From contig OX422187.1 in assembly GCA_949130485.1 (NCBI GenBank), positions 6,331,705 to 6,395,704 on the forward strand: a stretch of 64,000 bases of DNA, read 5' to 3'. This document shows, piece after piece, positions 2,788-62,300 of the stretch; the first letter of the stretch is position 1; every line of letters starts with the position of its first letter. The notes under the pieces are model-generated. The model made no database searches. It was not told the origin of the DNA and was given only the letters and a program-made list of their open reading frames with translations. This DNA comes from Agelas oroides. Its lineage: Eukaryota > Porifera > Demospongiae > Agelasida > Agelasidae. A program made the translations under genes and the position numbers.

Positions 2788-2829
2788 TTAAGTAGCTAGC
2801 TGGCTGGAGGAGTTATAGAAGAGCACCTT

Positions 2830-3700: not shown

Positions 3701-5010
3701 GAAATGAAACAGTTGTACATGGTGTATATAGCCCACCACATGCACTAATGCACGATAGTAATGCTGATAACCAAGCTGCTCCTGTTGAATGGGAGGGTAA
3801 ATTCGAGGACATAACAACATGGGACACAGTTCCACTAGGTGTAAATTACCCTAGTGTACAAGGGAGATTGAAACACAACGCTGAATTTTGGGAAAATGAG
3901 TTAACAGCCAGTAGTTTTGTGAGAAACATTGTTGCAGTAGGGTATAGGTTGCCATTATTTAGAAAGCCTCCACCGGCATTTTTCAAGAATCACGCTTCAG
4001 CCAGACAAGAATCACAATTTGTAGGAAGTGCACTGCACGAGCTTACACGGGCAGGTTGCATTGTCACAGCTGAACGACAGCCAGTGATTTGCAGCCCATT
4101 GTCAGTAGTAGAGAGTACAAGTGGAAAGAAAAGGCTGGTATTGGACCTGAGATATGTAAACAAGTTCCTCTGGAAAGATAAGTTCAAATATGAAGACATA
4201 AAAACAGCTATCCAAATGATTGAGAAAGGTGACTATGCAATAATTTTTGACCTAAAGCCAGGGTACCATCACGTAGACATACATGCTGACTACTGGGATT
4301 TTCGTGGAAAGGCAAGGATGGGGTTATTGTATATTACATGTTCAGAGTCCTACCATTCGGACTAGCAACAGCTCCATTTGTATTTACCAAGTTGCTCAGG
4401 CCACTGGTAAAGAGATGGAGAAGTAAAGGGTTAAAAGTTGTATTGTATATCGATGATGGCATTTGTGTGGGAGCCACAAAGCAAGCAACAAGCCAAGCAG
4501 CAAAAATGATTAGACAAGACCTAACCCGAGCAGGGTTTGTTATTAATGAAGAGAAGTCAGACTTTGAGCCTAGGCAGAGTGTCACATGTTAGGATTCTCA
4601 TTGGACCTAAATCAAGGAAACATCTCAGTTCCAGAACAACGTATATGTAAACTACAGGAAAGTGTAAGGAAGGTTTCTCCTAGTATGACAGTGCGTCAGC
4701 TAGCAAGCATAGTAGGCCAAATAGTATATATCCATGAATCTAGGGCTCGGTTCTGTAGCCAGGTTGATGACCCGGAGCCTGTACACCATAATCAACTGTA
4801 GGAATACATGGAATGACAAAGTCGTATGGACTGAGGAAGCATGGGGAGAGATAAAGTTCTGGGAGAACAACATAGAGAGCCTGAATGGCAAAGAGATGAG
4901 GTATAGTGCTGGAGCAGTTAGACTCGTGTACTCAGATGCTAGTGATTCAGGGTATGGGGGTTACACAGTGGATGTAGGCCTAACGTTGGTAAATTGTGTT
5001 ATTAATAAAT
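3700..5010 (+). mobile_element. Reverse transcriptase-RNase H region of the DIRS-like element
   Basis: Fossil part. Recognisable blocks are an RT palm motif (LVLDLRYVN), the PFGLATAPFVF block, the YIDD catalytic box, the LGFSLDL thumb-side block, and an RNase H start (VYSDASDSGYGG). The combination LGF...L followed by SDAS...GYGG is typical of DIRS/Ngaro-like elements. The region is broken. Confidence 0.75.
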
Positions 5011-5055
5011 AATGCCTGCCACAGGGGCAAAACCTCTGCAGAAAGATGTGAGAGG

Positions 5056-5248
5056 TGTTGTTTCTGTCGGTTGATTGGAGCAAAACGGAAAGAATTAGAC
5101 AGAAACGTAGCTCTCATATTATTGGGGCATCCCCATGAGTTGTACGCATGCGTAGATTAAGTATATAAGGGGAAGTGGGACTGTAAAAGCAGTTTTTTTT
5201 AGCTCTACTGTACGGCAGGCAAGGATCAGTTGTTCAGTGTGGTCAAAG
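5056..5248 (+). repeat. Second direct repeat of the DIRS-like element
   Basis: About 193 bp, near-identical to 2601-2787. It is followed by a stretch with a pyrimidine tract and AG that resembles a splice acceptor, then by the tyrosine recombinase region. Confidence 0.85.
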
Positions 5249-22564: not shown

Positions 22565-22568
22565 TTAA

Positions 22569-23574
22569 GGTGGCAGTGAAGTCTTTCGGTGGAGGTTAAC
22601 GAAAACATAAACATGGGTTACAGTCAGGACCAGGGTTACTCCTAGTTTCAGGGTTAGGGTTTGCTTTAGGGCAATCTTGCTTTGTCTAATTTTAAAAAGG
22701 GCTTTAGTAGCTCATTAATATATTCATGAACCCCAAATTGCCACTCGATGGACGCATCTACATGCTCACTGTAGGTAGCGTCCTAACCACCAATGTATCT
22801 CAAATCAGTCTGTCCCAGCTTTTGTTCAGAGCTACTCCCAAAGTCAGGCTAGACTCATGTTTGTCGCTACTCTTGGAATGGACAACTTTGACTGCACCAA
22901 AATGAATGCACATTTCAAAAAATTCCCAGCTTGTCTACGGGAGGGGCTCATTCACGAGTGGAAGCAAGCATTAGCTACTAGCCCCACCTCTCACCCTTAT
23001 GTCGCTAAACAACTCACGGTTCTGTTCCCCACACAACTCCTCTGCAGCTTTCTTGTCAACGCCAACGTAGTACCAACGATATATTGCGCATTCTAGTTAA
23101 AGCCCAGCCCAGCACTCGAAGCACCGGGCCACGATCACCTACTAGGCTTGGCATACGATTGCGAGACCTGGGCCTGCCCAATGAGTACAGTCTTGGCCAC
23201 TGAGGCCTTTCTGCTGCTTCTAGACACAAGCTTGCTTTCACAAGCAGGCACTTCACACTACTCACAGCTACTGACACAGCTACTGACACTACAGCACTCT
23301 ACTAAACTCCTTTTCTTGTTTTAAGTCGATCTAAGCTTATCTTCAAAGTTCCGACCACCACATGAGGGGTTCCGCCAGGCCACATCTTAACTAACTTAAT
23401 TATAAACTGATCATTGGATGTCAAAGCCGACAGGAAATGGGGAAAATCTCCAATTTTACGGACAGTGAACGGATGAAGACTCCCGAATCGGACTGTGCGC
23501 TAAAAGTTTACAAAGACACTATCTGCTTGGATTCCAGGTTTGTTGACCTTGAAAACACAGGGTTCCCTGCCACC
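22569..23574. mobile_element. TTAA-flanked non-autonomous DNA transposon, copy 1 (1006 bp)
   Basis: The ends are inverted (GGTGGCAG and CTGCCACC) and directly flanked by TTAA (22565-22568 and 23575-23578). The whole length matches 25547-26540 at high identity. TTAA duplication is the hallmark of piggyBac and Kolobok transposases. No transposase is encoded. A short open frame inside (about 22857-23096) is shared only in part with the other copy and is not treated as a gene. Confidence 0.8.
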
Positions 23575-24126
23575 TTAAAAGAAAAATTCTGAGAAGAGGA
23601 CAACCTCTCTACAAGGGACAAATTGCCCTGTCCCCAATGAATCCTTTGTTCGGACTGTACGCGTAGCTCAACTGGCACCATCGCTTCCTATCTGAGACTG
23701 AAAGCAGTGCAAACTGCAGGCATGTTTTGGGTGTGGGAGCAAGACTAGCTAGCTAGGTGTAGTCTTGTATGCATGTAGTAACTGTTACAAGAGTATAACT
23801 ATAGATATAATATACTCTTTGTCTCTTGAGAAGTGTTACATGCATTCAAACCTGTATCAAGCTATCATGCACTTTGAGTCTCCCAACTAGGCATCTTCCT
23901 GGAAAAAGGCAGGCCTAGATGCAATAATTAAAGTCACCCACTGGAATTTATGGCCATGCATGCCATACAATTACCATCATGCTTCCAAACTTATGTGACC
24001 ACTGCCACTGCATGGAGTACCTGGGACTACTATTCATGTATGCATAATTATGTAACTACCTAGTGATGTAGGTGTGATCATAATTAACATCCAACACTGC
24101 CCACCAACAATACTTCCAAAGTTGAA

Positions 24127-24301
24127 CAGGGGCGGAGACATAGGGGGGGCAGGGGGGGCTCAGCCCCCCCCAATTTTTGTACTAGTTGTACCAGAGAAAT
24201 ACAATATCATCTTGTTTCCAGGATTAGGGCACACCCCCACAGCTTAACATTTAGAACATGAGCCCCCCCCCCCCACTTCTTGGTAGCTGTCTCCGCCTCT
24301 G
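24127..24301. mobile_element. Short hAT-type MITE (175 bp)
   Basis: The terminal inverted repeat CAGGGGCGGAGACA pairs with the right end (CAGAGGCGGAGACA on the opposite strand). The 5-bp duplication TTGAA lies at 24122-24126 and 24302-24306. G-rich and C-rich runs lie just inside the ends, as in the complete hAT element at 30744-33714. Confidence 0.8.
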
Positions 24302-24522
24302 TTGAAGCATCCCACATTGGTAGTTACATACTTGCAACACACAATTAAAGTGCATGGTGAGGTAAGTTTTGTGTTGGTGATTTTCATTTCAATGTAAAAA
24401 ATGAGAGGAGACATAAAAAAAAAGTATGAAGTTGTTTCTTTAAGCTTGACTAACTGGCCTCTGAAACCATAATACACTCAGCTAGCTAAACGTTTGACAT
24501 AGTGCTGTTAGATCATGCTGCA

Positions 24523-27500
24523 CTAGGACGGAACCTCCGCCCCTGGCATGAAATCTCCGCGTAATGCGAAGTGGACTCTCCACTCGAAAACAGTGTAGCT
24601 GCACATCAGTAACTCAAAGTTTTCATGGTAGACATCCATAATGAGATCCGCGATGCCACAAAGTCTGTCTATAAGTAGGTTGACACCAGAGCTGGGGTAG
24701 TGGAACCACCAGGTGATGTTCAAGTGGCACTGGACTGTGGCTTGAGAAGTGTGGAAGATGGGTGTCACTGTAATGTTAGCCAGGTAAATGGTAGTTGGAT
24801 TTCTGGCGTACCCTTGTGATGGAGCTTCCTGCTGGAGGAGGGAGTACAAGGAGGGAACGGGAGGAAGAGAACAGGTCAGCCTATCTACACAAGAGGGTGT
24901 ATGTGAAGGTGTTACCACATACTGTGCCTACTATGACATAATGTGCATGTGTATACTGACAAAGGGAGTGGGAGAGGCAGAAGGTAGCGATAGAAAGATT
25001 CAGTGTGCCAGAAGGAGGGGACACGGAGGTGTTAGCAGTAAGGGATGAAATACACTGGTCCAAAGTGGACAACCACACAAGCCATACCCTACCTCTGTCC
25101 ACATCACATAGTTGCACTGTTCCACAGACAAAGCCATAGATCCTTCCAGAAGTTGACAATGCCTATCGTAGTACCCATGCAATGGACCACCACCAACCTG
25201 CATAGGCGTAGGAAGCAAATTTGAGGTGTAGAGGCCATGCTGTGCCGTGCAAAGCGCTGCTAAAAAAAATGAAATAGCGCGGCGGCGAATTTATTCTAAA
25301 TGTCCACCTTTAGACTGCAAAATAAAGCCTTTTTTCAACGGTGTATAATATTCTAGCCTCGTTCTCAGACCTTCCAGTACAATATTCAATTTATGAGGAA
25401 AACAGATTATACTGACTTCGTTGTCGTTCTCAGGAGACCACCTGGCTAGCTTTCATCGCTTGTACTAGTCTCTTTGAAAATCTGCATTAGCTTCGTACCG
25501 AGCCATCTCACTGCCAAGATTTCGATCACCTTATAGTGTACTTTAACGTGGCGGGGGAAGTCACTCGGCGGAGGTTACGAAAACATAAACCTGGGTTACA
25601 GTCAGGACCAGTGTTGCTCCTAGTTTCAGGGTTAGGGTTTGGTTTAGGGCAATCTTGCGTTGCCTAATTTTAAAAATGGGTTTTAGTAGCTTATTAATAT
25701 ATTCATGAGCCAAAATTGCCACCCGATGGATGCATCTACATGCTCACTGTAGGTAGCGTCCTAACCACCAATGTATCTCAAATCATTCTGTGCCAGCTTT
25801 TGTTCAGAGCTACTCCCAAAGTCAGGCTAGACTCATGTTTGTCACTACTGGAATGGACAACTTTGACTGCACCAAAATGAATGCACATTTCAAAAAATTC
25901 ACAGCTTGTCTACGGGAGGGGCTCATTCACGAGTGCAAGCAAGCATTACTAGCCCCACCTCTCCCCCTTATGTCGCTAAACAACTCACGGCTCTGTTCCA
26001 CACACAACCACCGTTCAGCTCCCTTGGGTACCAGAGTGTAGCACCAACGATAAATTGCGTATTCTAGTTAAAGCCCAGCCCAGCACTCGAAGCACCTGGC
26101 CACGGTCACCAACTAGGCTAGGCATACGATCGCAAGACCTGGGCCTGCCCAATGAGTACAGTCTTGGCCACTGTGGCCTTTCTGCTGCTTCTAGACACAA
26201 GCTTGCTTTCACAAGCAGGCACTACGTACTACTCACAGCTACTGACACTACAGCACTCTACTAAACTCCTTTTTTTTTTTTAAGTCGATCTAAGCTTATC
26301 TTCAAAGTTCCGACCACCACATGAAGGGTACCGCCAGGCCACATCTTAACTAACTTAATTATAAACTGATTATTGGATGCCAATGCCGACAGGAAATGGG
26401 GAAAATCCCCAATTTTACGGACAGTGAACGGATGAAGGTTCCCAAAACGGACTGTGCGCTAAAAGTTTACAAAGACAAAGAATTCTATCAGCTTGGATTC
26501 CAGGTTTGTTGACCTTGAAAACACAGGGTTCCCTGCCACCTTAATCGGAAACGTACGCATGTAACTACATATGAGACTGATGCAACGAAGAGGCTGCTTG
26601 ACCTTAGCCTTGCTTCCAGAGAACGAGGCTAGCTTGAGAGCATGCAGGCTATGAATATTAATTTACGGCCTAAAATGTGTAGCGGCCAAAGCCGCTACGG
26701 CCGCTACGGTTCCTATGCCACTGGTCCGACCTGCATGTGGACAAAAACAGTAAACTGGATATACAACACACAACCATACACAACAAGTGACAATGTAAAA
26801 TATCACTATGTATCAGTACACCCCTGTAAACCTCAGTATACAGTACCTGCACCATGACTGTTGCCACTGAGAGGAAGAAGGCTGCATGTGACCAGTGGTT
26901 CTCTCTTCCCTAGCTCAAGACAAGGGGAGTACAACACAGTGCTGCAGTTCCACTAGACTATGACACTCTAAAACTGGCAGCATTCACAAAGAGGGGGGGT
27001 GGGGGGAAGGAGGGAAGGAGGGGGAAGGGAGGATAAAGATAATGGGTCATGGGGGAAAGTACAAGAGGAGGGAAAGGGAGGGGGAAGGAGAGGGAGGAGA
27101 GGAGGGGGAAAGGAGGGGAGGGAGGCAGAAAGGGGTGGACATTAGGTCATGCATACATATATGAGAGGAGTAACTGGGATGAAGGGATCACTACACATGC
27201 AAGGTGTCTATGTACTGTTCACCTTAAATTGGTGATGAGGATATTCCGGGAGGTAGTCATGTTTCACTCTATCCTCCTCCTCCACGATCAAACTAACACA
27301 CTGCCAGAGATGGGCCAGTGATACTATGTTGGAGAGTGAGTAGCCTCATTCCCAGGCCTCCCCCGTTTTCAACTTCTGTTTGCATTCACAAAGGTAAAAT
27401 GGGGAAGGCCTGGGAACCAAGGCTAGAGAATGAGCAGGTTAGTACTTGCAAAAACATATCACATGGTGTCACATTCCAGGCACTATAAAGCAGGCTCTCA

Positions 27501-36201: not shown

Positions 36202-36367
36202 GGCTGAAGTAGTCTGTCATGGACACCATTTCGCTCACGCTCAGCACACACACGTAAGTGGATGTGCAACTTCCGCTCCAACAATTTAGGCACCCCCTAA
36301 AATTAATTCCAAAGTTCAAGGATGCTTACAATGGAACGGAAAAAAATTACGATATGCCCTAGGGGGT

Positions 36368-37197
36368 GCTTACATTGGGATGGCACCTACATTAGAAACT
36401 TTAGGGTAATCTGCTTTGCATTCCAGGGTGTTTCACTGATCCAAACATCAACATCCTTCAGTCTCAAATAAGTGACTAATTCCTACTGTACATGTGTAGT
36501 GGTGTCAGTGTACATGTAGGTGATGGGTGTGGTGCTTACATTGGGGTGGCACCTACATTAGAAACTTTAGGGTAATCTGCTTTGCATTCCAGGGTGTTTC
36601 ACTGATCCAAACATCAACATCCTTTAGTCTCAAATAAGTGACTAATTCCTACTGTACATGTGTAGTGGTGTCAGTGTACATGTAGGTGATGGGTGTGGTG
36701 CTTACATTGGGGTGGCACCTACATTAGAAACTTTAGGGTAATCTGCTTTGCATTCCAGGGTGTTTCACTGATCCAAACATCAGCATCCTTCAGTCTCAAA
36801 TAAGTGACCAATTCATACTGTACATGTGTAGTGGTGTCAGTGTACATGTAGGTGATGGGTGTGGTGCTTACATTGGGGTGGCACCTATATTAGAAACTTT
36901 AGGGTAATCTGCTTTGCATTCCAGGGTGTTTCACTGATCCAAACATCAACATCCTTCAGTCTCAAATAAGTGACTAATTCCTACTGTACATGTGTAGTGG
37001 TGTCAGTGTACATGTAGGTGATGGGTGTGGTGCTTACATTGGGGTGGCACCTACATTAGAAACTTTAGGGTAATCTGCTTTGCATTCCAGGGTGTTTCAC
37101 TGATCCAAACATCAGCATCCTTCAGTCTCAAATAAGTGACCAATTCATACTGTACATGTGTAGTGGTGTCAGTGTACATGTAGGTGATGGGTGTGGT
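36368..37197. repeat. Tandem array, five near-identical 166-bp units
   Basis: Units begin at 36368, 36534, 36700, 36866 and 37032 with GCTTACATTGGG, an exact 166-bp period. Units 3 and 5 share private variants (ATCAGCATCC, GACCAATTCATAC), while 1, 2 and 4 share another set, so the array also has a higher-order pattern. The minus strand of each unit carries an open peptide, but 166 is not a multiple of three, so it is not a repeat protein. Confidence 0.95.
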
Positions 37198-37354
37198 GGC
37201 ACAGGAGGGGAAGGGAGAAGATGGATAAGGCACATGTGAGTTTGTGATATGTAAGGACAAGGGAAAGGACGAGAGGGCAGGAAGGTAAGGAAGTAGTGTT
37301 ACCAGTGAAGTATAATGTACATGTTTATGTTATAGTGTGCGAGGGGAGACTTAC

Positions 37355-39180: not shown

Positions 39181-39903
39181 GCTGGTTACCACTTGTCTAT
39201 ACCTTATGTCATTCACATTGTAAAGCCCCCAGGCCTTCCATTTTACCATACCATGCATGTGTGTACTATTGGTGACACATACCAAAATGCGAGCAAACAT
39301 CCTTGCATGCCACTTGCCTCTGTACAGACATGTTAAGCCAGCTTGACGCTCACAGCTTGTGACGATCACACCAACTGTCTCACTAGTTAGATAACACTGT
39401 ATGTTGTGCTAGGGGTATAGCTCACCATGTAACTGAATTTACTGAACATGTGTGATTAACTCAAATGAAAATTAGCTTAAGAAATGGCCAACTCAAGGCT
39501 GGAGCACAAATAAGTGGCAAAATTAACATTACACAAAAATTATTTCCTTATTAACTTGACTTTCAAAAGAAGTGTAATTAACGTAATACAAATGTAAATA
39601 CAAAGACACTAGTTCCTACACAGAATGCAGATTGAGTCACAGCACTGCTACATTTACTGTTCTATCAGTCAACATTTCACACCGTTGTTTTGCTTTGTAA
39701 CCTTGTACTTTCTTCGAATACACATCAAATAAGGCAGGCAGCAAGCTGTAAAAGCAGTGAGTAGTGTCAGAAAAGCACCCAGTACAAGTAGCATGCCAAA
39801 TCTCACATAATTAACTGTATCACATCTGGAGTCGTTGTCAGTTTTACATCGCACGCATGAAAGAGGACGTTCATTATCAGCTAAAAGGTAGATTGGCAAG
39901 CTC
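39181..39903 (-). repeat. Donor copy of a 0.7-kb segment duplicated at 53051-53722
   Basis: The segment is repeated at high identity at 53051-53722. It covers the last exon end of the membrane-protein gene plus its 3' flank. It is longer than the other copy by about 60 bp (near 39573-39633) and lacks a 12-bp in-frame stretch present there. It starts with GCTGG and ends with CTC, which are shared with the recipient locus at the joints. Confidence 0.9.
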
Positions 39904-44986: not shown

Positions 44987-45671
44987 TTTTTTTTTTTTTT
45001 TTTTTTTTTTACTGAACAAATTTCTTATATCAGGTCATCAGAAGTAGCTAGTAAGCTAATATAAACTGATAACCTACAAAGACAAAAGATAAAACTAAAA
45101 CAAATTTACAATAGCACGCTTAAAAGCAGGTAAGGTAGAAATAGCACTAACATCTGAAGGTAAACTATTCCACAATCTAAAAAAATGAGTTTGAATAAAC
45201 GTTTGAATGCGCACGTGGCTGTACCATGGAGCTGGAGTTAATAGACCGAATAGAATTGCCATAGGGAGTGGATCTAAAAACAGTGGGAAGGTTTGGAAAA
45301 GTAGCAAGCCTGTTAACCATGTTGTAGAATAGGCAGAGTTTTAAACATTTTCTTCTTGTGGCTAATGTTGGAAGGTTGGCGAGTTGCAAGAGTTCCTCAT
45401 ATCCACATCGCCATCGCTTTAGACAAACTTTCAACCCAAACTTCTGAATACCCTCAAGCCTCTCGATGTCTTTCTTCAGGTGAGGATCCCAAACACTACA
45501 AGCATATTCAAGGTGTGGACGAATCAATGACTGGTACAAACGTAGGAGGGTATGTGGTTCTGAATAGAGATAGAACTTTCGATAAAGGACCCCAATAAAT
45601 TTTAAGCGATTTTCTCTGAAAATGCTTCGTTGCGAAGCTAGAGTGTTTCCTGTTGGTACGGCTACGTGATA
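44987..45671 (-). mobile_element. 5'-truncated LINE (non-LTR retrotransposon)
   Basis: On the minus strand this is the C-terminal part of a LINE reverse transcriptase (YQSLIRPHLEYACSVWDP, then a RLWNSLPSDV tail domain), ending in a stop near 45095 and an A-tail of 24 bases, seen as poly-T at 44987-45010. One frameshift occurs at an A-run near 45180-45187. The style is that of Jockey/CR1-like or RTE-like elements. Only about 0.7 kb of the 3' end is present, as expected for an incomplete insertion. Confidence 0.85.
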
Positions 45672-45858
45672 AGTCGGCCATTTTTTACTCCGTATCACGT
45701 AGCCGTACCAACAGGAAACACTCTAGCTTCGCAACGAAGCATTTTCAGAGAAAATCGCTTAAAATTTATTGGGGTCCTTTATCGAAAGTTCTATCTCTAT
45801 TCAGAACCACATACCCTCCTACGTTTGTACCAGTCATTGATTCGTCCACACCTTGAAT
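45506..45858. repeat. Palindrome with 166-bp arms and a 21-bp loop
   Basis: 45506-45671 and 45693-45858 are inverted copies with no mismatch that I can see. The loop is 45672-45692. The left arm is the end of the LINE fragment. The right arm is the first part of the DNA brought in with the R2-like element. The arms would form a very stable hairpin. Confidence 0.9.
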
Positions 45859-48800
45859 TGTGATGGTCACGTGATATAAAATGGCGTGCTGCAAGTGTAA
45901 CAGATCCGGCTCCTGTAAGGGCTGTGCCTGTAGAAAGGCAAAGAAATCCTGCGATAACTGCCTGCCCGGGAAGCTAGGGAACTGTACCAACCGCCAACCT
46001 GCTGTCACACGAACCGCCAACCCCGCCAATACTAACCCCAACCCGCCAACCACAACCACCACTGCCGCGACCAGTCAACTCGGACCTCCGTCCTCAGCGC
46101 CCGACTCCTCTGCACACACTAGTGCCCCAAGTCAGCCCTCTGTTCCTGATACACCTTTCTCCCTCGATGAGCACCCCCCACCGCTACCAGAATATGTCCC
46201 CATGAGCACACCAACGTTCACATGGGGAAAGTTTAGTGGCTCGGCCTTTGCAAAATCCCTAGACGCCACATACGCCGAAGTAGTCCACTGGAGGCGCAAC
46301 CACTTCACTGTTCCTTTTGGCAAGGCAGGAAAAGACTTTGTGAGGGAGTTATCAAGGCTCTACTCAGCCTACGGATCCGCCTCCGCTATGGAATCTGTCG
46401 CCTTAAAGGCTGCCTTGGTGTTCCCAATACTGCTCCTGCAAAAGCCAAGCAGGGCCTCTAAGACCAAACATCACATTACACACCTTGAGAGAAGGTTGGG
46501 GTGGTGGTCCAACGGAGAATTGGACGAACTAGTGAGGGAAGGCAGAGCCATACAACAGAGGCTACCCAAAAGTGGTTCGACCAAGGTCAACTCCAACCTG
46601 GCTCGCTCTTTCTCCAACCTGATGTTCATGGGGAAGTGTAAGGCCGCCCTTGACCTCTTGTCCAGGGAGGAGAAAGGGGGCATTCTCCATCTTGACGATC
46701 CTGTCAACCCAGACGACCCAAACTCACCTACTGTCAGAGAATCACTGATCAGCAAGCACCCCGTAGGCCAACCAGTGTATAACTCATGTATAATTCCAAA
46801 TGAACCACAGGACCCCCACCCCGTGATATTTGAGTCTCTAGACGCCAATGTCATCCGTTCAGCTGCCTTGAGAGTGAATGGTGCCGCCGGCCCCTCTGGC
46901 CTGGACTCCCACGAATGGAGACGTCTTTGCACCAGCCACAAGGGTGCATCAAGAGACCTCTGCGCCTCTCTTGCATCAGTTGCCATAAGGATCAGCACCT
47001 CATATGTGCACCCCTCATCCATAGCCCCACTCCTTGCATGTCGTCTCATCGCACTCGACAAACATCCTGGAGTCCGCCCAATCGGCATTGGAGACACGCC
47101 CCGCCGTATCATTGCTAAAGCCATCCTTTCCATCACACAGCAAGATATCCAGGATGCATCAGGCTGCCAGCAGATGTGTGGTGGACAGATTTCTGGGATT
47201 GAGGCTGCTGTTCATGCAGCACGTCAAGCATTTGACTCAGCGGAATGCGAAGCTGCCCTACTCATAGACGCCACGAATGCATTCAACTCCCTTAACCGCC
47301 AAGTAGCACTGCAAAACATCAGACGCCTCTGTCCCCCAATTGCCACCATCCTAGTCAACTCTTACAGAGCCCCAACAGAGCTCTTTGTGGATTGTGATGT
47401 CATCCTTTCACAGGAAGGAACAACACAAGGTGACCCGCTAGCCATGGCCATGTATGGCCTGGCTACAATCCCTCTCATTCGAAGGCTGAACGGCCCCTGC
47501 AAGCAAGTTTGGTATGCCGATGACTCCGCTGCCTTTGGCTCCCTTGAACATCTACGCAGCTGGTGGGATAGACTGACCACAGAAGGCCCCAGCTATGGCT
47601 ACTTTGCCAATCCTTCCAAAACATGGCTGGTAACTAAAGACCTGCACCTCCAAAATGCAGCCAAGATCTTTGCTGGCTCAGGGGTTAACATCACCCCAAA
47701 TGGTAGGCCTTACCTTGGTGCAGCCTTGGGCTCCCCAGACTTCATCGAGGAACACCTGCGATCTAAGGTCGGGGAATGGACATCAAGTATTACCCTCCTC
47801 AGTGAGATCGCAAAGTCTCAGCCCCATGCTGCCTACTCAGCCCTGGTACATGGCCTTTCAAGCAAATGGTCCTACCTGAGCAGGGTAACCCCTAATATTA
47901 GTCACCTATTGATCCCACTTGACACCGCTTTGAGAACGGAGCTGCTGCCCGCCCTCACTAGTAGGCCCACACCCAATGACCAGGAATGTGCCCTCTTTGC
48001 CTTACCAGCACGGCATGGGGGCTTGGGGATAAGAATCCCCTCCAAGAATGCAGAGAAAGAACTGCAGTCCTCCCAACTAGTCACCTTCTCCCTCGTATCT
48101 CACATCCTTGAACAAAACCAGGAGTATGGATATGACATCATAGCCGATCAGCTGCAGAGCAAGGCCACTATCAGAAATCGGAACAAAGAAATGAGCTCCA
48201 AAGAAGCAGATCACCTCTACAGCTATTTGCCAGCCCAACTGCAGAAAGCAGTGGATCTAGCCAAGGAGAAAGGTGCCTCCACCTGGCTCACAGCTCTCCC
48301 CCTCAAGGAACATGGCTTTTCACTGCATAGGGCTGCTTTCCACGATGCCATGGCCCTGCGATACGGATGGTCTCCCTCAAATCTCCCGCCCATGTGCGAC
48401 TGCGGCAACCATTTCACTGTTGAACATGCACTCTCATGTGCCAAAGGAGGTTTTCCTTCCATCAGGCACAATGAAATCCGCGACCTTACGGCCAATCTCC
48501 TCACAGAAGTGTGTAGCGAGGTGTGCATTGAACCCAACCTGCAGCCAACTACGTCAGACCAACTGTCTGGAGCCACTGCCAATTCACAGGACGGGGCGAG
48601 GCTTGATGTCTCAGCAAATGGAGTGTGGGGTGGGAGATTTGAAAAGACATTTTTTGATGTGCGAGTCTTCAACCCCCACGCCCCCTCTAACAAGAACCAG
48701 ACGCCTTCCGCCTGTTACAGAAAGCATGAGAAAGAGAAAAAACGAGCTTATGAACAGAGGATACGCGAGGTGGAGCACTCGTCTTTCACTCCACTTGTTT

Positions 48801-49212
48801 TTTCGGCCACAGGAGGAATGGGGAGAGAGGCAACCTGTTTCTACAAACGCCTGGCCTCCATGCTCGCTGAGAAGTGGGATCATCCATACAGCACCACACT
48901 CTGGTGGCTAAGGTGTCGTCTGACCTTTTCCCTTATCCGTTCAGCCATCCAAGCCCTACGAGAAGCAAGATCCTCTCGAGGCCAAGCCGCCCACCCTCCA
49001 GCAGCCATAGACCTTGCCATCACTGAGTCCTATATTACACCAGATTTTTAATCTCTTTGTTTCACCCAAGTTTCCTTTTTGTTTTGTACATACGTCACTT
49101 ACTATACATTTTTTGGTGGTTGTTGTTGTTGTATCACGTGCAGTGCATGTGTGTGTTGAATCACCAGTTGAGTTGACGACAAAAAAAAAAAATAAAAAAT
49201 AAAAAAATAAAA
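45693..49212 (+). mobile_element. R2-like non-LTR retroelement with copied flank at its 5' end
   Basis: The exact 13-bp duplication ATTTTTTACTCCG at 45680-45692 and 49213-49225 bounds the insertion. Inside are a 166-bp inverted copy of the upstream flank (45693-45858), a very short leader, a 1056-codon gene (45881-49051) and an A-rich tail (49180-49212). A 3' A-tail and a target duplication indicate target-primed reverse transcription. The gene is intact, so the insertion is recent. Confidence 0.8.
45881..49051 (+). CDS. Reverse transcriptase with CXC N-terminus and restriction-like endonuclease, 1056 residues
   Basis: Uninterrupted frame. A Cys-rich CXC (tesmin-like) module occupies about residues 3-36 (CCKC, CKGCACRK, CDNC). 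A Pro/Thr/Ser-rich linker follows. The RT spans about 330-620, with motif A LLIDATNAFNS (D463), motif B QGDPLAMAMY (about 516-525) and motif C YADD (545-548). A zinc knuckle (C839, C841, H849, C853) leads into a PD-(D/E)XK-like nuclease (RHNEIRD, D904, D909, FFDVRV with D926, then a Lys/Glu-rich helix). This N-finger, RT, knuckle, nuclease order matches R2/NeSL-type retroelements, whose nuclease nicks DNA to prime copying. I recall near relatives in corals and sponges. The ATG is 22 bp after the copied flank. Confidence 0.85.
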   Translation: MACCKCNRSGSCKGCACRKAKKSCDNCLPGKLGNCTNRQPAVTRTANPANTNPNPPTTTTTAATSQLGPPSSAPDSSAHTSAPSQPSVPDTPFSLDEHPPPLPEYVPMSTPTFTWGKFSGSAFAKSLDATYAEVVHWRRNHFTVPFGKAGKDFVRELSRLYSAYGSASAMESVALKAALVFPILLLQKPSRASKTKHHITHLERRLGWWSNGELDELVREGRAIQQRLPKSGSTKVNSNLARSFSNLMFMGKCKAALDLLSREEKGGILHLDDPVNPDDPNSPTVRESLISKHPVGQPVYNSCIIPNEPQDPHPVIFESLDANVIRSAALRVNGAAGPSGLDSHEWRRLCTSHKGASRDLCASLASVAIRISTSYVHPSSIAPLLACRLIALDKHPGVRPIGIGDTPRRIIAKAILSITQQDIQDASGCQQMCGGQISGIEAAVHAARQAFDSAECEAALLIDATNAFNSLNRQVALQNIRRLCPPIATILVNSYRAPTELFVDCDVILSQEGTTQGDPLAMAMYGLATIPLIRRLNGPCKQVWYADDSAAFGSLEHLRSWWDRLTTEGPSYGYFANPSKTWLVTKDLHLQNAAKIFAGSGVNITPNGRPYLGAALGSPDFIEEHLRSKVGEWTSSITLLSEIAKSQPHAAYSALVHGLSSKWSYLSRVTPNISHLLIPLDTALRTELLPALTSRPTPNDQECALFALPARHGGLGIRIPSKNAEKELQSSQLVTFSLVSHILEQNQEYGYDIIADQLQSKATIRNRNKEMSSKEADHLYSYLPAQLQKAVDLAKEKGASTWLTALPLKEHGFSLHRAAFHDAMALRYGWSPSNLPPMCDCGNHFTVEHALSCAKGGFPSIRHNEIRDLTANLLTEVCSEVCIEPNLQPTTSDQLSGATANSQDGARLDVSANGVWGGRFEKTFFDVRVFNPHAPSNKNQTPSACYRKHEKEKKRAYEQRIREVEHSSFTPLVFSATGGMGREATCFYKRLASMLAEKWDHPYSTTLWWLRCRLTFSLIRSAIQALREARSSRGQAAHPPAAIDLAITESYITPDF

Positions 49213-52150: not shown

Positions 52151-52509
52151 GGTAGAATCACTAGAATGACTGGGGAACATTGGTTCCTAGAGATGATTGA
52201 CTGGGGGTTACTGGAAGGGAGAGTCACAAATCCTCACAATACAGGGTGGGTCAATTCTTACCTTGGTCACACAAATGGCCAACCCAAACTTGATGGAGTG
52301 CATTGCGTGTGCGAAGCGGAAGCCAGCTGTGCCATGGAACTGCATCCAGACACTTAGCATTTGCTCCGGCAAGTTACACAAAACAGTTTGGAGTTGCTAA
52401 AAGGCATACAGGAAAGCAAAACACCAAGATATCAGGTAGTCTGTATTGTCTACAAGAGGATTGTGCAATAATTCTATTGCAAAAACAAATTGTGTAGCTA
52501 ATGGCTGGA

Positions 52510-53055
52510 CTCTTATACTGTGTAGACCCCAATAGTCTCAGTATTAACATACCTTACCTCGTCTCTATAGCCTGTAAGCTAAACCTTTACGTACCTACTG
52601 AGATGCCAGGTTGCTACAAGGAGCCTAGATATGAAGCTACTCATGATCATTGTCAAAGTAACTCATAAAATGAAGACATCTCTTTAACTCATAGCTAGCC
52701 TTGCTGTGCTTGCTGCATAAAATTACTACCAGCCTATAATAAGTGTAAGCACAGGTTTCAAAGGTACAACTCTACCTATACTTGCACATGTGCAGTTTGT
52801 TTCTGTGAACATCATGAAGAGACTAAGCCGAAAATAGGTGCATCATTTTTTAATGCTCAGAGTACGTAGTGGTTTCATTTCAATTGAATACTTAATCACA
52901 AAAGGAAGTATAATCAACAGACAAAGGCAGCATAAATTTAGTTCTAACAAAACAAGCCTTACTAAAATGCATTTTAGTTTGAGTTTAGACTTGCTCTAGA
53001 GTTCATATAGAGCCATACTCAGAGCGAGAGGGGGTGGGAGTGGAAGAAGGGCTGG
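52510..53055 (-). repeat. Displaced copy of the copper ATPase 3' end
   Basis: 546 bp nearly identical to 53720-54271. It includes the last codons of the ATPase (ending SEYGSI-stop on the minus strand) and its 3' flank. It is not attached to an ATPase gene and cannot be translated from one, so it is a non-functional duplicate. Confidence 0.9.
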
Positions 53056-53722
53056 TTACCACTTGTCTATACCTTATGTCATTCACATTGTAAAGCCCCC
53101 AGGCCTTCCATTTTACCATACCATGCATATGTGTACTATTGGTGACACATACCAAAATGCGAGCAAACATCCTTGCATGCCACTTGCCTCTGTACAGACA
53201 TGTTAAGCCAGCTTGACGCTCACAGCTTGTGACGATCGCACCAACTGTCTCACTAGTTAGATATCACTGTATGTTGTGCTAGGGGTATAGCTCACCATGC
53301 AACTGAATTTACTGAACATGTGTGATTAACTCAAATGGAAATTAGCTTAAGAAATGGCCAACTCAAGGCTGGAGCACAAATAAGTGGCAAAATTAACATT
53401 ACACAAAAATTATTTCCTTATTAACTTGACTTTCAAAAGAAGTGAGTCACAGCACTGCTACATTTACTGTTCTATCAGTCAACATTTCACACCGTTGTTT
53501 TGTTTTGTAACCTTGTACTTTCTTCGAATACACATCAAATAAGGCTGGCAGCAAGCTGTAAAAGCAGTGAGTAGTGTCAGAAAAGCACCCAGTACAAGTA
53601 GCATGCCAAATCTCACATAATCAACTGTATCACATCTGGAGTCGTTGTCAGTTTTACATCTCAAATATGGCACGCATGAAAGAGGACGTTCATTATCAGC
53701 TAAAAGGTAGATTGGCAAGCTC
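53051..53722 (-). repeat. Inserted copy of the 39.2-39.9 kb segment
   Basis: 672 bp nearly identical to 39181-39903. It carries the last part of the eight-pass membrane protein (a DNERPLSC loop and two membrane spans), with a 12-bp in-frame addition (VPYL instead of V) and a deletion of about 60 bp in the 3' flank. It is joined to its neighbours through GCTGG on the left and CTC on the right. Confidence 0.9.
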
Positions 53723-54271
53723 TTATACTGTGTAGACCCCAATAGTCTCAGTATTAACATACCTTACCTCGTCTCTATAGCCTGTAAGCTAAACCTTTAC
53801 GTACCTACTGAGATGCCAGGTTGCTACAAGGAGCCTAGATATGAAGCTACTCATGATCGTTGTCAAAGTAACTCATAAGATGAAGACATCTCTTTAACTC
53901 ATAGCTAGCCTTGCTGTGCTTGCTGCATAAAATTACTACCAGCCTATAATAAGTGTAAGCACAGGTTTCAAAGGTATAACTCTACCTATACTTGCACATG
54001 TGCAGTTTGTTTCTGTGAACATCATGAAGGGACTAAGCCGAAAATAGGTGCATCATTTTTTAATGCTCAGAGTAGTGGTTTCATTTCAATTGAATACTTA
54101 ATCACAAAAGGAAGTATAATCAACAGACAAGGGCAGCATAAATTTAGTTCTAACAAAACAAGCCTTACTAAAATGCATTTTAGTTTGAGTTTAGACAACA
54201 CTGGACTTGCTCTAGAGTTCATATAGAGCCATACTCAGAGCGAGAGGGGGTGGGAGTGGAAGAAGGGCTGG
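53720..54271 (-). repeat. Copper ATPase 3' end, gene-attached copy
   Basis: 552 bp nearly identical to 52510-53055 and continuous with the functional last exon (54219-54363). The duplicate breakpoint falls inside that exon. Confidence 0.9.
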
Positions 54272-54363
54272 AGGTCCCTGGTAGTATCTCGTATTGGCCA
54301 CCCTTTCTCCTGCGAGGAGCATAAGCGTGATCTTGGTAGTTCTCTATCTGGGGCTTGTGATAG

Positions 54364-54423
<60 letters not shown>

Positions 54424-56346
54424 AGGGGGGGGGGGGGGGGGACGTGTGTGCATTATGAATTTGTGTATGCATATGTGTGCATGCATGTCTGGGAATTTGG
54501 CAGAAACTTAGTGTCTGTGCTACCAGCAAATGTTACTCATTGTCATGTCACTGTTAATCATTTATAGGTTGTATTTCATGCACTGTGAGAGGTAGCCTTG
54601 TTCCCATGCAAACACAAGAGCCTGGGAATGAGGCTATGTGAAGAGAGCTAACACACTCAAGTGTACCAGAGGTATCTTAGCAGGAGTGAATTGCAGACCA
54701 CCGAGACAGAGCTCAGTGCCATGGCAGCACTGGCCATCCATGGCTGGAGCTGCACCCCGACTGGTGTCAGTACCCCAGCTGCAATAGGGATACCAATTGT
54801 GTTGTAGAAAAGAGCCCAGGCAAAGTTCATACGGATTTTGCGCACTGTTTGCTTGGAGAGGTGAATTGCTCCAATAACATCAATTAGGTTGTCCTGTAAA
54901 ATTATACAAAGTATGAGAAGTTTATTAGCATGGGTAGAACAGGTCAAACCCAAGATTCTCCCATGGAGATAATGGTAAATCTTTTTCTTAGTTAAATGGC
55001 TTTACAAGTATTGAAGGAGGGTCATTGAGTTTACTTAACGCACAAATGGGAAGACATGCTTTCACCTACTTTAATTTACATGATAAGCAAAGGCCATCAG
55101 CTATTGTTCTTGCCATCCAGCACACCTCTCAAATCAGTTTAAGCACTGATGGCACTGCTAGAGGAAAATGTGTCAGCCCCAACAAACAGATAAGGACTGC
55201 CAACTGGCAGCTTTTCAGCAAGAAGTGATGGTGTCATTCTCAGGGTTGCTGACATTTGCATTGATACAAGAGGGCCCTAACCCTACAGTAGCTTCTCTCA
55301 CTTTCACGAGCACAATGTCAGCGGCCTCCACTGCAACATCAGTGCCTGTGCCAATAGCAATGCCTACATCAGCCTGGGCAAGGGCAGGAGAGTCATTGAT
55401 ACCATCTCCCACCATTGCCACCTGCAAGGAGAGGAAGAGGTAAGTTTTTGTGTAGTAATTATTTGGCGCTGTGGTCTAAATAGCCTTGCAACAAATTGTC
55501 ATAGTCTCTGTTGGCTCTGTTGCCAGTATCCACAATATTGTTTATAATACGTTTAGTAGTTTATGTTCTTCTGCCATGTTCCATCCTTCATCTCTTGTTC
55601 GTACCATGTTTACTGACAGTTCTCGCGCCTGTAATTCAAACGTTATTTGATACAACTATTTGTATGGCACTAGTCTTTGTAAGTCTTATGCATGTGATCA
55701 CATTGCCATTGGTAATCTAGTCAGAGAAATTCGCTCCATGCACACTTTTATCCCTCATTTCAGCCACAGTGAACTGGAAGCAATTGTATCAGTTGCTGTA
55801 TCTTTATAATTTCTATGTACCTTATCTTTGCACCCTTCTATTCGGTGTGTTTATCATAATAATAATAATATAAATTATATGAGCATTTCATGTCAGGAAA
55901 CAGCTAGCTTTACTTCCAGAATTTCCCTTGTCTAGCATTTGCATAATATATAAGCAATCAATTCTTTTCAGCCAGAAAGTCCTTAACCCATTTAAGTTAT
56001 TTCTGGTTTTCCTTGCTGCTGACCTTGGTGCCATCCTCCTGGAGTATAGCCACCTGCTCCTTCTTGTGGTTGGGAAGTACCTCAGCATACACCTCCTCTG
56101 GTGGAATGCCAACCTGAAATAATTTAGATTATACTCAATGTCTGTTGGTTGATAATGAACTCAAGGCTGCCACAATGTGTACTGGTTAGCTCTTACAAAC
56201 GGTCATCTATCAACACATACAGTTTACTGTAGCAGACCACTGTAAATTACATTCTAAGCTGAAACTAGCACTGAATTCTATTTGCCTGCCACCACAATCA
56301 TGGCTCCTTCAAATGTACTTATGTCTTCTGCCACACACACACACAA

Positions 56347-56377
<31 letters not shown>

Positions 56378-59300
56378 CACACCATACACCACACACACAC
56401 CACACACACACACCATACACGACATACACACACACCTCCTCAGCGATGGCTTGTGCAGTTCTCCTGTTGTCTCCAGTAAGCAGAACCACCCTCAGCCCCA
56501 TCTTGTGCAGGGCATGTATGGCGGCTGGAGCCTCCGGCTTAATGGTGTCTGCAATCACCAGAGCTCCCAGTAGGATACCTGAAGGAGAGGAGTCATTGCA
56601 TAGTCACTGTTGCCGTGACTATTACCACAGTTCAGTACTAGTTGCTCCTGCCATCCATTTACATCCTCAGTTTTCTTTAAGCTTTAAAGACGATGTAGCT
56701 ATATGCATGACAGACAAGGGCAACTATACATGACACACAACCTTCAAAGTTTTATCTTCAAGTACAGCCATCCTGACCATAATATTCAGTCAAGGCTGCT
56801 AAATTGAGGTTCAAGTTCTCACTTCTAGTTACAGTTTCTACAGGGTTTCGCTCAAGTATGGACTATCTGCCTGGCAGACAATGTAAGCCAAGCTGCTCAT
56901 TGGATGGGGCCACGGTCATATGCTTTGACGGTATGAAGCTTAGCCATGCTGTGCATGCTTCATACACTTCACAGCTGGTAGGATGTCTGTAGTCTGCATT
57001 TGCTGACTGAGCCTCGCCCCCACAATGTTCTGTAATAATCTAGTTGAGCATATGTAGATTCTGTTGACAATGGCTATTAGTATACTAGTCTCTCCTACCA
57101 TCTACAGCTGCCAGCACTACAGTTTGCCCAAGTTCTTCATATCTCTGTAGGTTCTGCTCCATTTCAGTTGTCACACGCACATTGTTAGCCATCATCCACT
57201 TTCGGTTGCCAATGAATACCTGTGTATCAAAATAAACAGATCTCATTAAAACCACATTCTGACATAACAGGCCCACCAAGCACTGATATTCCTGTTGACA
57301 TGTTGCTCAAATGTCTCCTGGAATCTCTGTTCAACTTAGGAAACTGAAAACCTGGGGAGAGGGTCTTGGACAGAGTATGCTAACCTTGTACTTCTTCTGT
57401 GGATGTGCAGTCCCTACAAGGTCCTGAATATTGCTTGGCACGAGACTGACTTCAGTTGAGGAGTACAGGTGTCTAGTGAGCGTTTCTGAGCTTTCTCCCT
57501 CCTTCACTGCATACCTCTCCACACCACTCACCACACAGTGGAGGCCACGACCAGAAACCGCTTGGAAGTTGCTGCACTCACCTTGTAGACTCCCTCCCAG
57601 CTCCTGTGTAGGGACGACACAGCTAGCTGCTATGCTCAATACAATCAGTGCTGACATTCATACATTAAGAGTGTCATTTACCTAGGCCATCAGCAGCGAA
57701 TGTGTTTTAGAAAGCAAGTAAGAAACATGCCAGGCTACTACACAGCTTATCTTATTCACTGCTGATTGCTTAATTTGTACATGGATGTATTGTATATGGA
57801 TGACAGTAGAAATTGCATGTGAGTCACTTGTTGTTATGAGCATAAGGACTTGCTCATGAATTCAGCCATTTTAAGAAGTGACAAACCACTCTGGACTGTG
57901 CTCAATAGTCTTGTGCCCAGCCCACGCATGCCTCCCGGTTAGAAACGGTCTTGTGAATGAAGTTCAATTTATTGGGCTTATTCTAAATAAGTGGTAAAGA
58001 CCAATGAGGTTGTGCGATCGTTAATTATTAGGTAGCACTTCCCTTACAGCAGTAAAATTAGTTATCTCTACTCGGGTATCCATACTTTTCTTAGTGGGTT
58101 GTGTGCAGAATCTTTGGAATGTTGCTAGGTTACACAGTTGCAAGAGTGTGTGCTAGCCCAAGAAATTTGACTTGGTTCACCAGACCATTTTCCTTGTGAG
58201 AAGGTGGGATCTGGGTACAAGACTATGTGCTATTGGTGTATAGCCAAATGTCTGTTCAAAAAGCTTTGCAGCAAAAGACAAATAACTACCATGCTTTACT
58301 TTTGTGCACACGTTTGAAAGTACGACATTTGAGGTCAAGCCTAACACTTGTAAACTAGAAATTAATTCTGTTGCCAAGCATGCAGAATTTATAAGTCAGC
58401 TTACTGCAGCCATTTATGTTTTGGGCAAAAATTGGATGATCTCAGTGTGTCAAACCTTTCTGGCAAACTCAGTGATGGCCACACCCAGTGGGTGCTCACT
58501 GTTCTGCTCTGCCAAACCAACGATGGCTGTAAACAGCTGGTGGGGACACACCCTCTCTGCCACAAAGAGCATCACATGGGTCACCTCAGGTTTGCCGTGG
58601 GTCAGTGTTCCTGTCTTGTCAAACACAACAGACTTGATCTGGTTGGGAAGAGAGTGTTCGGTAAGCAACTTACATGGTACCATTCTAATTTTTGACATTT
58701 CCATTTGAGGGCTTTATAAGCAACTTGGTTGTTGTTCAAACGTGCATAGCTACTCATGCTTGCTATCCCATTTCTACACGATACAAGGGATCAAATCTGG
58801 AGGTAGGAATGAGGCTATGTTTCATTCCTTGTAGTAATTGAAGCAAATAGAGTCTACACACATAAAATCAATGCCAAAAAATTGTGTGCCAGCAATTATG
58901 CAGTCAATTAGACACACTCATTTAATTTTGATATGCAGTACCATGAACCCTTATACTGCTGTAGCTATGTACTTGATAAAGTAGTATGTACATCTGAAGA
59001 ACAATTGCATGTTATCTTTGTTACCTACATAATTATGCCAAATATGGATAAGGCCAAGTGCAATCACCTGACTGCTATTTTCACACTCCCATCTCCCACT
59101 CACACCAGTGTAGCAGATAAGCCCTAGTATTGGCGAAAACATGTTCTGTACAGTTGGTAGCTTTGCACACCACCTAAGGCCTGCCTTGTTTCAAAGAGAT
59201 GTATTTCACTGCTTGTTCATGCTTGTTGCATGTATTCGTGCCATTTCGGGGAGAAGTGGTAAAACCAGGAACAGTGAAAGGAAACGGCAACAGTCACCAT

Positions 59301-62300
59301 GGCCATTCCTGTTGATTTCACTTTTCTTCAAATGAGCATACATGGCTTGCTGTTGGACCATATAGCTATTGGCACAGATAGTTCCTGTGTCAAAGGTTGT
59401 TTTGTTTGTCATTCCTGTCTACACTGTGGTGACTTTTTCATGGTGAATGTGTAGAGAGACAGAATTAACAGTGTGCCTATCTTACTTAGGGTTCTCGTGA
59501 GACACATGCATTTCACATGGAACTCCTGCTCACATGCACTACAATATTCTTTGCACAAGCCATGGTGTAGGAAGAATTGTCAGTGTAGCTTATGTAGTTC
59601 ACACACCAAGTAGCTAAGAAGTCCATGAAAACCTTCATGGGATGTTGTTTTCAGGCCTCAAATTTCATGTAAACAAAGCTAATGCATATTGCACACATCG
59701 CACACCAATTGCAGTAGCTATCCTCAGCAATAATTTTGCTGCCCTTTTGTTGCATTCGGAATTCCATCTGTGCCAATGGTGTTGATGAGCTATAAACAGT
59801 ATGCATTGGTCAGCAAAACTAAAGTATTGGATGGATACTTTCTTTCAGGGCAATTGCACATGTCTCACTCATTTACTGTAAGCTCCCGAAAATATGTCCC
59901 TCCCTTTTGCACACACTTTTGAGGCAAAAGTGGGGAGGGGGTGTTTGCTCGAATATTCAGTTAATCTTATGCATACCCATGGTTCCTTGTGATGTTATGC
60001 TCGAGGTCACAAATCATGATGACAGCAGTGACTTTCCAGAAGAACAGCCAGCAGCTTTGCTGAACATGTACTACAGGTTGTGTTGATACTAAGCCGAGAA
60101 GCAACAAAGCAACTTGCATCATTAGTGGTGACAGGGGATGACCCTGTGTAAGCTTGTAGCCTACTGTGAGCATTGAAACCTTGGTGGTGACCAGAGAAAG
60201 AGGCTATAGCAATTTCGAGTGTACACACTCGGCAACAGAGCTAAACCAAAAGCTTACTAAAAAGCATGCCCAGAAGACGCTTGCTACAAGGCATTTACAA
60301 AGACCTATGCAAGAAGTTAAAGAGGGGGAAGGGTGTTTGCTTGAAGGGGACGTATTTTCGGGAGCATATGGTACATACCAATCTCACTCATTCTGCATTG
60401 AGTTCTCACTCATTTTTGTTTAAGAGTTTGAGATCTCTGCTTAGTGATGACTCACAGCTAAGTTACCAGTGTGAGGCTGAATTAACAAATTCGGGTGCTT
60501 CAGAGGAACTTGGTGTGGTTGGTGCTTCAGTGAGGCCCAGTCGCAAAATTCTGGTGTATTAACGCCACAACTGGACCACAAGCTGTCCTGAAGTCGAAAG
60601 TCAGCTCACAATTTAGTCATGGACTATGGCCATGTGCATTAATGACCTTAAACAGATAATGCAACTCAGAGTACTGCAGACTGCAGCATCATCTGGTTTT
60701 TAAAAACTTGCGTACTGTCAATAAGCAGAGTTCAGAGGACCCTACAACTTCATATTCATTAATCTCTGAGAACTGAGAACTCATGTGAGAGCACTATACA
60801 TAGACAGTGCAGATACTGTACCATTTCTGTTCCCAATTCTGTCTCCATTTTAACCATTTCTGGTTTACCTCTTCTCTTCCATAAGGCCAGCTTGCAGGGC
60901 TGTAGCAAGCTATTTCAAGGTGGTGTGGCCAAAGTCTACATACCGCATGTAGTATCAACTAGCTATAGGGGGGTCAGGGGCATGCTCCCCCAGGAAAAGT
61001 TTGTTAAATTAGACCCTAGGAAATCGCTTCTGAGGCCATTTTTAGGCCCCAAATCTCATATGTTCTGCAATTCTTAGCAAACAGAATTTCAATAGGTGCT
61101 ACACATAGTCTCTGTGAGGTAGTGATTGGAGATTGCGCGTGTAACATAGTGCACATAGCAGCCACGTATGGAAGGCATACCGCCGCAGCAAAAATAAATG
61201 GCTCGGAGATCGCTTCTTAGCTGTGATCATGGGTAAACAGGAAGCTGATTTACATTGAGTACTGAATGAGTAGTCTTGTTCCCAGGCTCCCGCCCAGCTT
61301 TCTGTCACTGGCACTATGTACTGCCTGCAAACGATGGAAAGCTGGATGGGGCCTGGGGAACGAGGCTCAGATTCTGCGTATGAACTTAGCTGCACGCACC
61401 TACCGCAGGCAGCACGAGCTTCGTCGCAGTAAGGAATGGCCTCGAGTAAACCGAAATGGCTGAAAATCCTAACACAACATACCTTTTTGTCAGTGAAATT
61501 TGCACGATGATGGGCAGCCACTTTTGAGACGGCTCGGCTTACTAGTTCTTGTACGTATGACTTTATGTGTATTCAAAGTGCGCATGTGCATGTTTAGTCT
61601 GCGAAAAAGTGGTCGGGCCAAAACCCCACCAGCCTGACCGTTTGTTATGGCTATGGCTTGTAATAGTCAAATAGGCAAGGTGTGTCTTGCTATTCCAGTA
61701 CCTCAAACCTCCAGCACGTGTCAGTTCTCTCAATTCTCTTGTAAAATGCATTGTGGTCTGGCTAACCTTGTGTGTTGTCTCCAGTGGTTCTCCTCCCTTG
61801 ATGAGGATCCCACTCTGGGCCCCCACCCCCGTCCCCACCATCACAGCAGTGGGTGTGGCCAAACCCAGGGCACATGGGCATGCAATCACAAGAACTGAGA
61901 TAGCATGCAGAAACACATCACTGATGTCATACAAGCATCTGGAGCAGGTGAGGTTGGCATAGGGAGCAGAGTTGTTGCTGGTATTATCATATGTGGTCAA
62001 GTTTGTGGTGTTAACAGTCTCATTGCCAGCATAGCAGGCCTGGAGCAAGAAAATGGTGGGAAGAGGATGGAGTAAATTGTGGGAAGGAAGAGGAAATATT
62101 CATTGTTAGTAGCAGTGTACATGTGATAGGACTTTAGAAAGAAAATGGTGCAGAGGGGCAGAAATGATTATTAGTAGAGATACAGCAGGATTGGAGTGGG
62201 AGAATTGTGGATGGTCAGTTAACCCTCTGAACGTGGTGACCATATATGCATAGTCACATTAAACTTCCTGTCGTCATGGTTACCATATATATATGCTCAC

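What the first reader, a model, noticed from the sequence alone, without database searches (positions are those of the whole stretch)
52510..54271. Insertion of a distant 0.7-kb segment between two copies of the copper ATPase 3' end, with microhomology at both joints
Order seen: copy A (52510-53055), a copy of 39181-39903 (53051-53722), copy A again (53720-54271). The left joint shares GCTGG between A and the donor; the right joint shares CTC between the donor and the start of A. This is what two template switches during repair or replication would leave (an MMBIR-type event): the polymerase left A, copied about 670 bp at a locus 14 kb away in the same orientation, and returned to the start of A. 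All copies are very similar, so the event is recent. No transposon termini or target duplications are present.
Basis: partly seen in the sequence, partly recalled or inferred. Interest (0 to 1): 0.8.

Follow-up and report, generated by a model that had tools for sequence, protein, structure and literature searches.

The report
Templated insertion inside a tandem duplication
Beside a copper-pump gene, a stretch of about 550 bases was copied twice with a piece of another gene from 14,000 bases away between the copies, most likely because DNA copying briefly jumped to the wrong place and back; this is a clear example of a known kind of accident.

Summary
In detail: A1 (52510-53055), a copy of 39181-39903 (53051-53722) and A2 (53720-54271), with GCTGG shared at the left joint and CTC at the right. 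A paralogous segment 2 Mb away (C5:8.35-8.37 Mb) has left flank, one A and right flank without the insert, so duplication plus insert is derived. Paralogs of the donor gene continue past the donor's right end, so 39181-39903 is the source. A1/A2 (5 of 542 sites) and donor/insert (8 of 663) do not differ in divergence (p = 0.78; wide intervals). A plain microhomology tandem duplication would join there; instead the copied segment sits exactly in that join, with one base missing. This favours one repair event: a detour to the donor through GCTGG and a return through CTC, a one-template 'cycle of templated insertion' in the terms of cancer genomics. The insert also lacks 60 donor bases. No transposon borders, poly(A) tail or intron loss were seen. 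An assembly or haplotype artefact cannot be excluded without reads. A well-resolved new example of a known kind; interest modest.

The parts
52503..52509 (+). Left copy of the 7-bp direct repeat GGCTGGA that flanks A; present also in the paralog
52510..53055 (+). A1, left copy of the duplicated 3'-flanking segment
53051..53055 (+). Left joint: GCTGG shared by the end of A and the donor
53025..53056 (+). G-rich tract at the end of A1 (|G4Hunter| up to 1.80; 3.1% of random positions as high)
53051..53722 (+). Insert: copy of 39181-39903 less 60 bp (and with 9 bp that the donor now lacks)
53443..53446 (+). Place of the 60-bp gap relative to the donor (2-bp overlap TG; overlaps of 2 bp or more are common by chance, P = 0.16)
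53720..53722 (+). Right joint: CTC shared by the donor and the start of A
53720..54271 (+). A2, right copy of A
54266..54272 (+). Right copy of the direct repeat GGCTGGA
54365..54441 (+). (TG)n tract 54365-54422 and run of 17 G 54425-54441, 94 bp beyond A: possible stall site (inferred)
39181..39903 (+). Donor (source): region 3' of the stop codon plus about 77 last codons of a minus-strand gene, probably a multi-pass membrane protein (inferred from the sequence; no Pfam hit above cut-off)
54657..62099 (-). Copper-translocating P-type ATPase gene (five exon frames tested), apparent stop at 54657-54659, upstream of the rearrangement in the gene's sense

Best explanation
One germline DNA-repair or replication accident made the whole structure. 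SHOWN: the paralog has left flank - A - right flank with GGCTGGA on both sides of A, so this order is taken as ancestral; the insert is a copy of the 14-kb-distant locus; the joints carry 5-bp and 3-bp overlaps; the insert lies exactly in the register of the GGCTGGA/GGCTGGA join with one base missing. INFERRED: synthesis stalled or broke at the G-rich end of A. The nascent 3' end, ending in GGCTGG, could pair with the GGCTGGA before A (giving a plain tandem duplication) or with GCTGG at 39181. It first copied about 660 bp of the donor, perhaps slipping over 60 bp through a 2-bp overlap (or those 60 bp were lost later), then re-paired through CTC directly behind the left GGCTGGA and copied A again into the right flank. 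The result is a tandem duplication of A with a templated insert in its join. The opposite direction of synthesis would leave the same product. The polymerase (MMBIR/FoSTeS or theta-type) is not determined. No function is proposed for the product.
For: Outgroup with a single A, no insert and both GGCTGGA repeats. Donor parentage from C18 and two C3 paralogs that run past the donor's right end and a C18 copy that keeps the 60 bp. Divergences not different: 0.92% and 1.21%, p = 0.78. Derived changes fall on all four copies: 52767 and both indels on A1; 52669, 52820, 52925 on A2; 39736, 39812 and the 9-bp loss on the donor; the 39693 site and the 60-bp loss on the insert. 7-bp repeat in register: P about 0.0005 for two random window positions; 0.002 allowing +/-1 bp with positions drawn from 50-56 kb. 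G-rich tract at the A end: 3.1% of random positions as extreme.
Against: The 3-bp right joint and the 2-bp overlap at the 60-bp gap are not rare by chance (P = 0.055 and 0.16). Six sites were tested for G-richness and two are copies of one another, so that result is weak after correction. GGCTGGA is locally common: 5 places in 51-56 kb, 11 on the + strand of the window. The left part of the donor has no good outgroup: only a 73% match of about 100 bp on C8, which puts the 39430 change on the donor and leaves 39394 and 39468 open, so 4 of 8 donor/insert substitutions stay unpolarised. The divergence ratio is loosely bounded (odds ratio 0.76, 95% interval 0.25-2.3), so events two- to fourfold apart in age would not be told apart. 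No reads were available.
Confidence: 0.68

Rival explanations
1. Two events: a plain tandem duplication of A through GGCTGGA, then a later break exactly at the A|A join, filled with a patch copied from the donor.
For: The 7-bp repeat in register is what a plain microhomology tandem duplication uses; the divergences do not exclude a gap in time.
Against: The second break would have to fall within 1 bp of the join out of more than 550 bp; no uninterrupted A|A join is in the window (the junction string occurs only once, at 52503, as the left edge of A1).
Confidence: 0.12
2. Offset nicks about 550 bp apart gave a break with long overhangs; fill-in duplicated A and end joining captured a double-stranded donor fragment.
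For: Tandem duplications from adjacent nicks on opposite strands are described (passages of PMC5730883; Vaughn and Bennetzen 2014 and Schiml 2016 seen only as cited titles).
Against: Does not predict the 7-bp direct repeat at the two A ends, nor the 5-bp overlap at the left joint; needs a free donor fragment.
Confidence: 0.08
3. A and the donor were first joined in an extrachromosomal circle that then integrated by homologous recombination in A, giving A-donor-A.
For: Gives the same order; circular intermediates with microhomology are proposed for human segmental duplications (PMC7450558, abstract and outline only).
Against: Needs more steps and does not predict that A's ends fall on GGCTGGA repeats.
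Confidence: 0.04
4. Assembly artefact: A1 and A2 are two alleles wrongly placed in tandem.
For: About 1% divergence is a plausible allelic distance (inference); no reads or second haplotype were available; only one complete place found in the assembly.
Against: An artefact does not readily make a 672-bp copy from 14 kb away in which donor and copy each have derived changes, nor place the joints on 5-bp and 7-bp matches.
Confidence: 0.06
5. A mobile element or retrocopy: A as long terminal repeat, or the insert as a transposon or a reverse-transcribed 3' end.
For: The insert covers a gene's 3' end, as truncated retrocopies do.
Against: Homologs of both parts elsewhere run on past both edges of A and past the insert's right border (the left border is not testable so). 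No poly(A) at the insert's sense 3' end and no GT-AG at any of the three placements of the 60-bp gap. By contrast 2601-5248 has many partial copies elsewhere, one starting within a base of its left border.
Confidence: 0.02

Closest known systems
'Cycles of templated insertions' (PCAWG structural-variant class, PMC7025897)
   Same: A string of copied template returns to the host locus and re-replicates a host segment; templates under 1 kb occur; most events involve two junctions (passages read).
   Different: Those are somatic, in human cancers. This is in a reference assembly of a non-human eukaryote (inferred), hence probably germline, has one template only 14 kb away, and its duplication ends lie on a 7-bp repeat.
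FoSTeS / MMBIR complex rearrangements
   Same: Microhomology at switches, copied nearby sequence at the joint (passages of PMC4056370; PMC5120786 abstract).
   Different: The cases of PMC5120786 are human clinical rearrangements; the enzymology is untested here.
Tandem duplications with templated insertions from theta-mediated end joining of failed repair intermediates (C. elegans helq-1 and brc-1)
   Same: Tandem duplications of about 0.1-10 kb (helq-1), microhomology and occasional templated insertions at the join (passages of PMC8654963). brc-1/brd-1 animals also make tandem duplications, mostly 10-20 kb (passages of PMC7368036).
   Different: Templated inserts there mostly map next to the break; here about 660 bp came from 14 kb away. 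The repair proteins of this organism could not be checked.

Membership tests
Cycle of templated insertion | Host segment re-replicated on both sides of the inserted template | tested here: met
   A1 and A2 flank the insert; single A in the outgroup
Cycle of templated insertion | Inserted template still present at its source | tested here: met
   39181-39903 remains, with paralogs running past its right end
Cycle of templated insertion | All junctions arose together | tested here: inconclusive
   Divergences not different, p = 0.78, and 7-bp register, but odds ratio interval 0.25-2.3
FoSTeS/MMBIR | Microhomology at each switch | tested here: met
   5 and 3 bp at the joints, 2 bp at the 60-bp gap; 7 bp between the duplication ends. 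The 3- and 2-bp overlaps alone are not beyond chance
FoSTeS/MMBIR | Replication-dependent synthesis (PIF1/POLD3 type; recalled) | not testable with these tools
   needs genetics
Theta-mediated end joining | Dependence on polymerase theta | not tested
   family searches unanswered; dependence itself needs genetics
Transposable element (LTR or DNA type) | Copies elsewhere sharing defined borders | tested here: not met
   homologs run through the three borders that have homologs; the insert's left border has none
Retrocopy | Poly(A) tail and intron loss | tested here: not met
   no tail; 60-bp gap not GT-AG at any of its 3 placements

The most novel reading that the evidence does not exclude
The locus is a built-in template-switch trap: a G-rich stall site at the end of A, ending in GGCTGG, with a matching GGCTGGA 546 bp back and further GCTGG sites near by. 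Nascent strands leave and return within one base, so duplications and templated insertions recur here and could be caught segregating in living populations. The paralog at C5:8.36 Mb keeps the same pair of repeats around A.
Probability: 0.15. Interest if true: 0.5.

Novelty: new member of a known kind. Interest (0 to 1): 0.3.

Why it matters
The named class of templated-insertion cycles was described in human tumours. A probable germline case in another lineage, with an outgroup for the host locus and for part of the donor and about 1% divergence, suggests the same process feeding ordinary genome evolution, here by pasting the last codons and 3' flank of one gene behind another. The three-way GCTGG match shows where a nascent strand could choose between templates.

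Tried and rejected
Mobile-element origin: searched the own genome with the full structure, the donor and A (only the best candidates are scored); borders are not shared with other copies. A's 7-bp flanking repeats as a target-site duplication of an element A: rejected, because homologs at C5:8.36 and C5:8.03 Mb continue across A's left edge. Retrocopy and intron loss: rejected. Single-strand folding of 100-base stretches at four sites: the stretch around the A start folds better than shuffles (z = -2.8), the other three do not; not used as evidence. Other direct repeats in the window: 2601-5248 is a repetitive element and 22565-26544 a TTAA-ended element pair, not further templated insertions. 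Literature: 'sponge' + 'genome' + 'microhomology-mediated break-induced replication' (sponge was a guess of mine at the host) gave 4 papers, none on this by title (listing only); the host organism was not identified. 'Cycles of templated insertions' + 'germline' gave 9 papers, mostly on cancer by title (listing only). Two further searches gave 3 and 5 papers; of these only PMC4056370 was opened.

A survey of 1.6 Mb around the window for similar structures was planned and could not be run, so no rate is given.

Full report
Check. The window is G000:C5:6331705-6395704 in a 259-Mb, 141-contig assembly, a eukaryote by its split exons (inference). Self-comparison and global alignment confirm A1 52510-53055, insert 53051-53722 and A2 53720-54271, the insert matching 39181-39903 in the same orientation. 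A1/A2: 5 mismatches in 542 aligned sites, with gaps of 4 and 10 bp. Donor/insert: 8 mismatches in 663, with gaps of 60 and 9 bp. The joints share exactly GCTGG and CTC. Against 400,000 random position pairs in the window, overlaps of at least 2, 3, 5 and 7 bp occur with P = 0.16, 0.055, 0.0054 and 0.0005: the left joint and the 7-bp repeat stand out, the right joint and the 60-bp gap do not.

Which copy is original. Genome searches found further partial homologs. A segment at C5:8.352-8.369 Mb, inverted, carries the same ATPase gene and flanks: 52162-52643 and 53957-55505 align to it continuously through the outer edges of A1 and A2, and A is present once there, interrupted by about 3.3 kb after A position 237. 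In the 9.9-kb loci L035, L036, L037 and L041 there is no match to the insert at E <= 1e-8. So left flank - A - right flank is taken as ancestral. The donor's paralogs on C18 and C3 (two) continue past the donor's right end into the body of a minus-strand gene; its 120-aa last open frame has 4 weak Pfam matches, none above a curated cut-off. The C18 copy keeps the 60 bp missing from the insert and nine bases at the place of the 9 bp missing from the donor. Hence the insert is the copy, it lacks 60 bp, and the donor itself lost three codons after the split (or the insert was copied from an allele that still had them).

Ages. 0.92% and 1.21% substitutions (Fisher p = 0.78; exact 95% intervals 0.3-2.1% and 0.5-2.4%; odds ratio interval 0.25-2.3). 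With outgroups, A1 has one derived substitution and both indels, A2 three substitutions, the donor two substitutions and the 9-bp loss, the insert one substitution and the 60-bp loss; a weak C8 match adds 39430 to the donor. One A site and four donor sites remain open. This fits one event and is not what a collapsed or copied assembly error would give, but allelic mis-joining cannot be tested without reads.

The flanking repeat. A's end (54266-54272) and the seven bases before A (52503-52509) are both GGCTGGA, in register, and the paralog has the same pair. A simple microhomology tandem duplication would give ...GGCTGG-A-CTC...; the observed structure is ...GGCTGG-[insert]-CTC..., so the insert occupies exactly that join with one base missing. 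The chance of a 7-bp match at two random positions drawn from 50-56 kb, allowing 1 bp either way, is 0.002, although GGCTGGA occurs 5 times in 51-56 kb. The donor's left end is a third GCTGG. I therefore favour one event in which a strand ending in GGCTGG detoured to the donor and came back to the site where it could have paired directly. The end of A is a G-rich tract (|G4Hunter| 1.80; 3.1% of random positions as high; one of six sites tested, two of them copies of one another), and a (TG)n plus 17-G tract lies 94 bp further on; a stall there is inference.

What it is not. Among the scored matches no copy elsewhere shares the testable borders as an element would; the insert has no poly(A) tail and its 60-bp gap is not GT-AG at any of its three placements. 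A is 3' flanking DNA about 386 bp beyond the apparent ATPase stop, not coding. The gene is a copper-type P-type ATPase: TIGR01511 matches all five exon frames tested and is the best hit on two of the five; single exons stay below the whole-protein cut-off.

Known kin. PCAWG's 'cycles of templated insertions' re-replicate a segment of the host chromosome around copied templates (passages of PMC7025897). Replication-based models predict copied nearby DNA at joints and are said to be indistinguishable from one another by breakpoints (passages of PMC4056370). Theta-dependent tandem duplications in helq-1 worms carry microhomology and occasional templated inserts (passages of PMC8654963); those of BRCA1-deficient worms also depend on polymerase theta (passages of PMC7368036). 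This locus works like these; pathway membership needs genetics. It is a new example of a known kind.

Noticed in passing
22565-23578 and 25543-26544: Two 1-kb copies (90.7% alike) that begin with TTAA and end CTGCCACCTTAA, the first beginning TTAAGGTGGCAG: a TTAA-ended inverted-repeat element pair, piggyBac-like (label recalled).
   Followed up: partly
2601-5248: 2.6-kb repetitive element with 187- and 193-bp direct repeats at its ends; many partial copies in the genome, one starting within a base of its left border.
   Followed up: partly
45506-49051: A 353-bp palindrome (45506-45858) directly before an uninterrupted 1058-aa open frame with a reverse transcriptase domain.
   Followed up: no
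36365-37198: Tandem array with a period of about 166 bp, shifted copies 97.6-98.8% alike.
   Followed up: no
C5:8352101-8371900 (L041, L035): Inverted paralogous segment holding the copper ATPase gene, 76-92% alike by piece, 2 Mb from the window.
   Followed up: partly
39850/39851: The donor gene's last exon lacks nine bases (three codons) whose place is filled both in its own copy at 53051-53722 and in the C18 paralog.
   Followed up: partly
C8:5227764-5227877 (L015): A 73% match of about 100 bp to the middle of the donor's 3' region (39397-39496): part of that region is shared with another place.
   Followed up: partly
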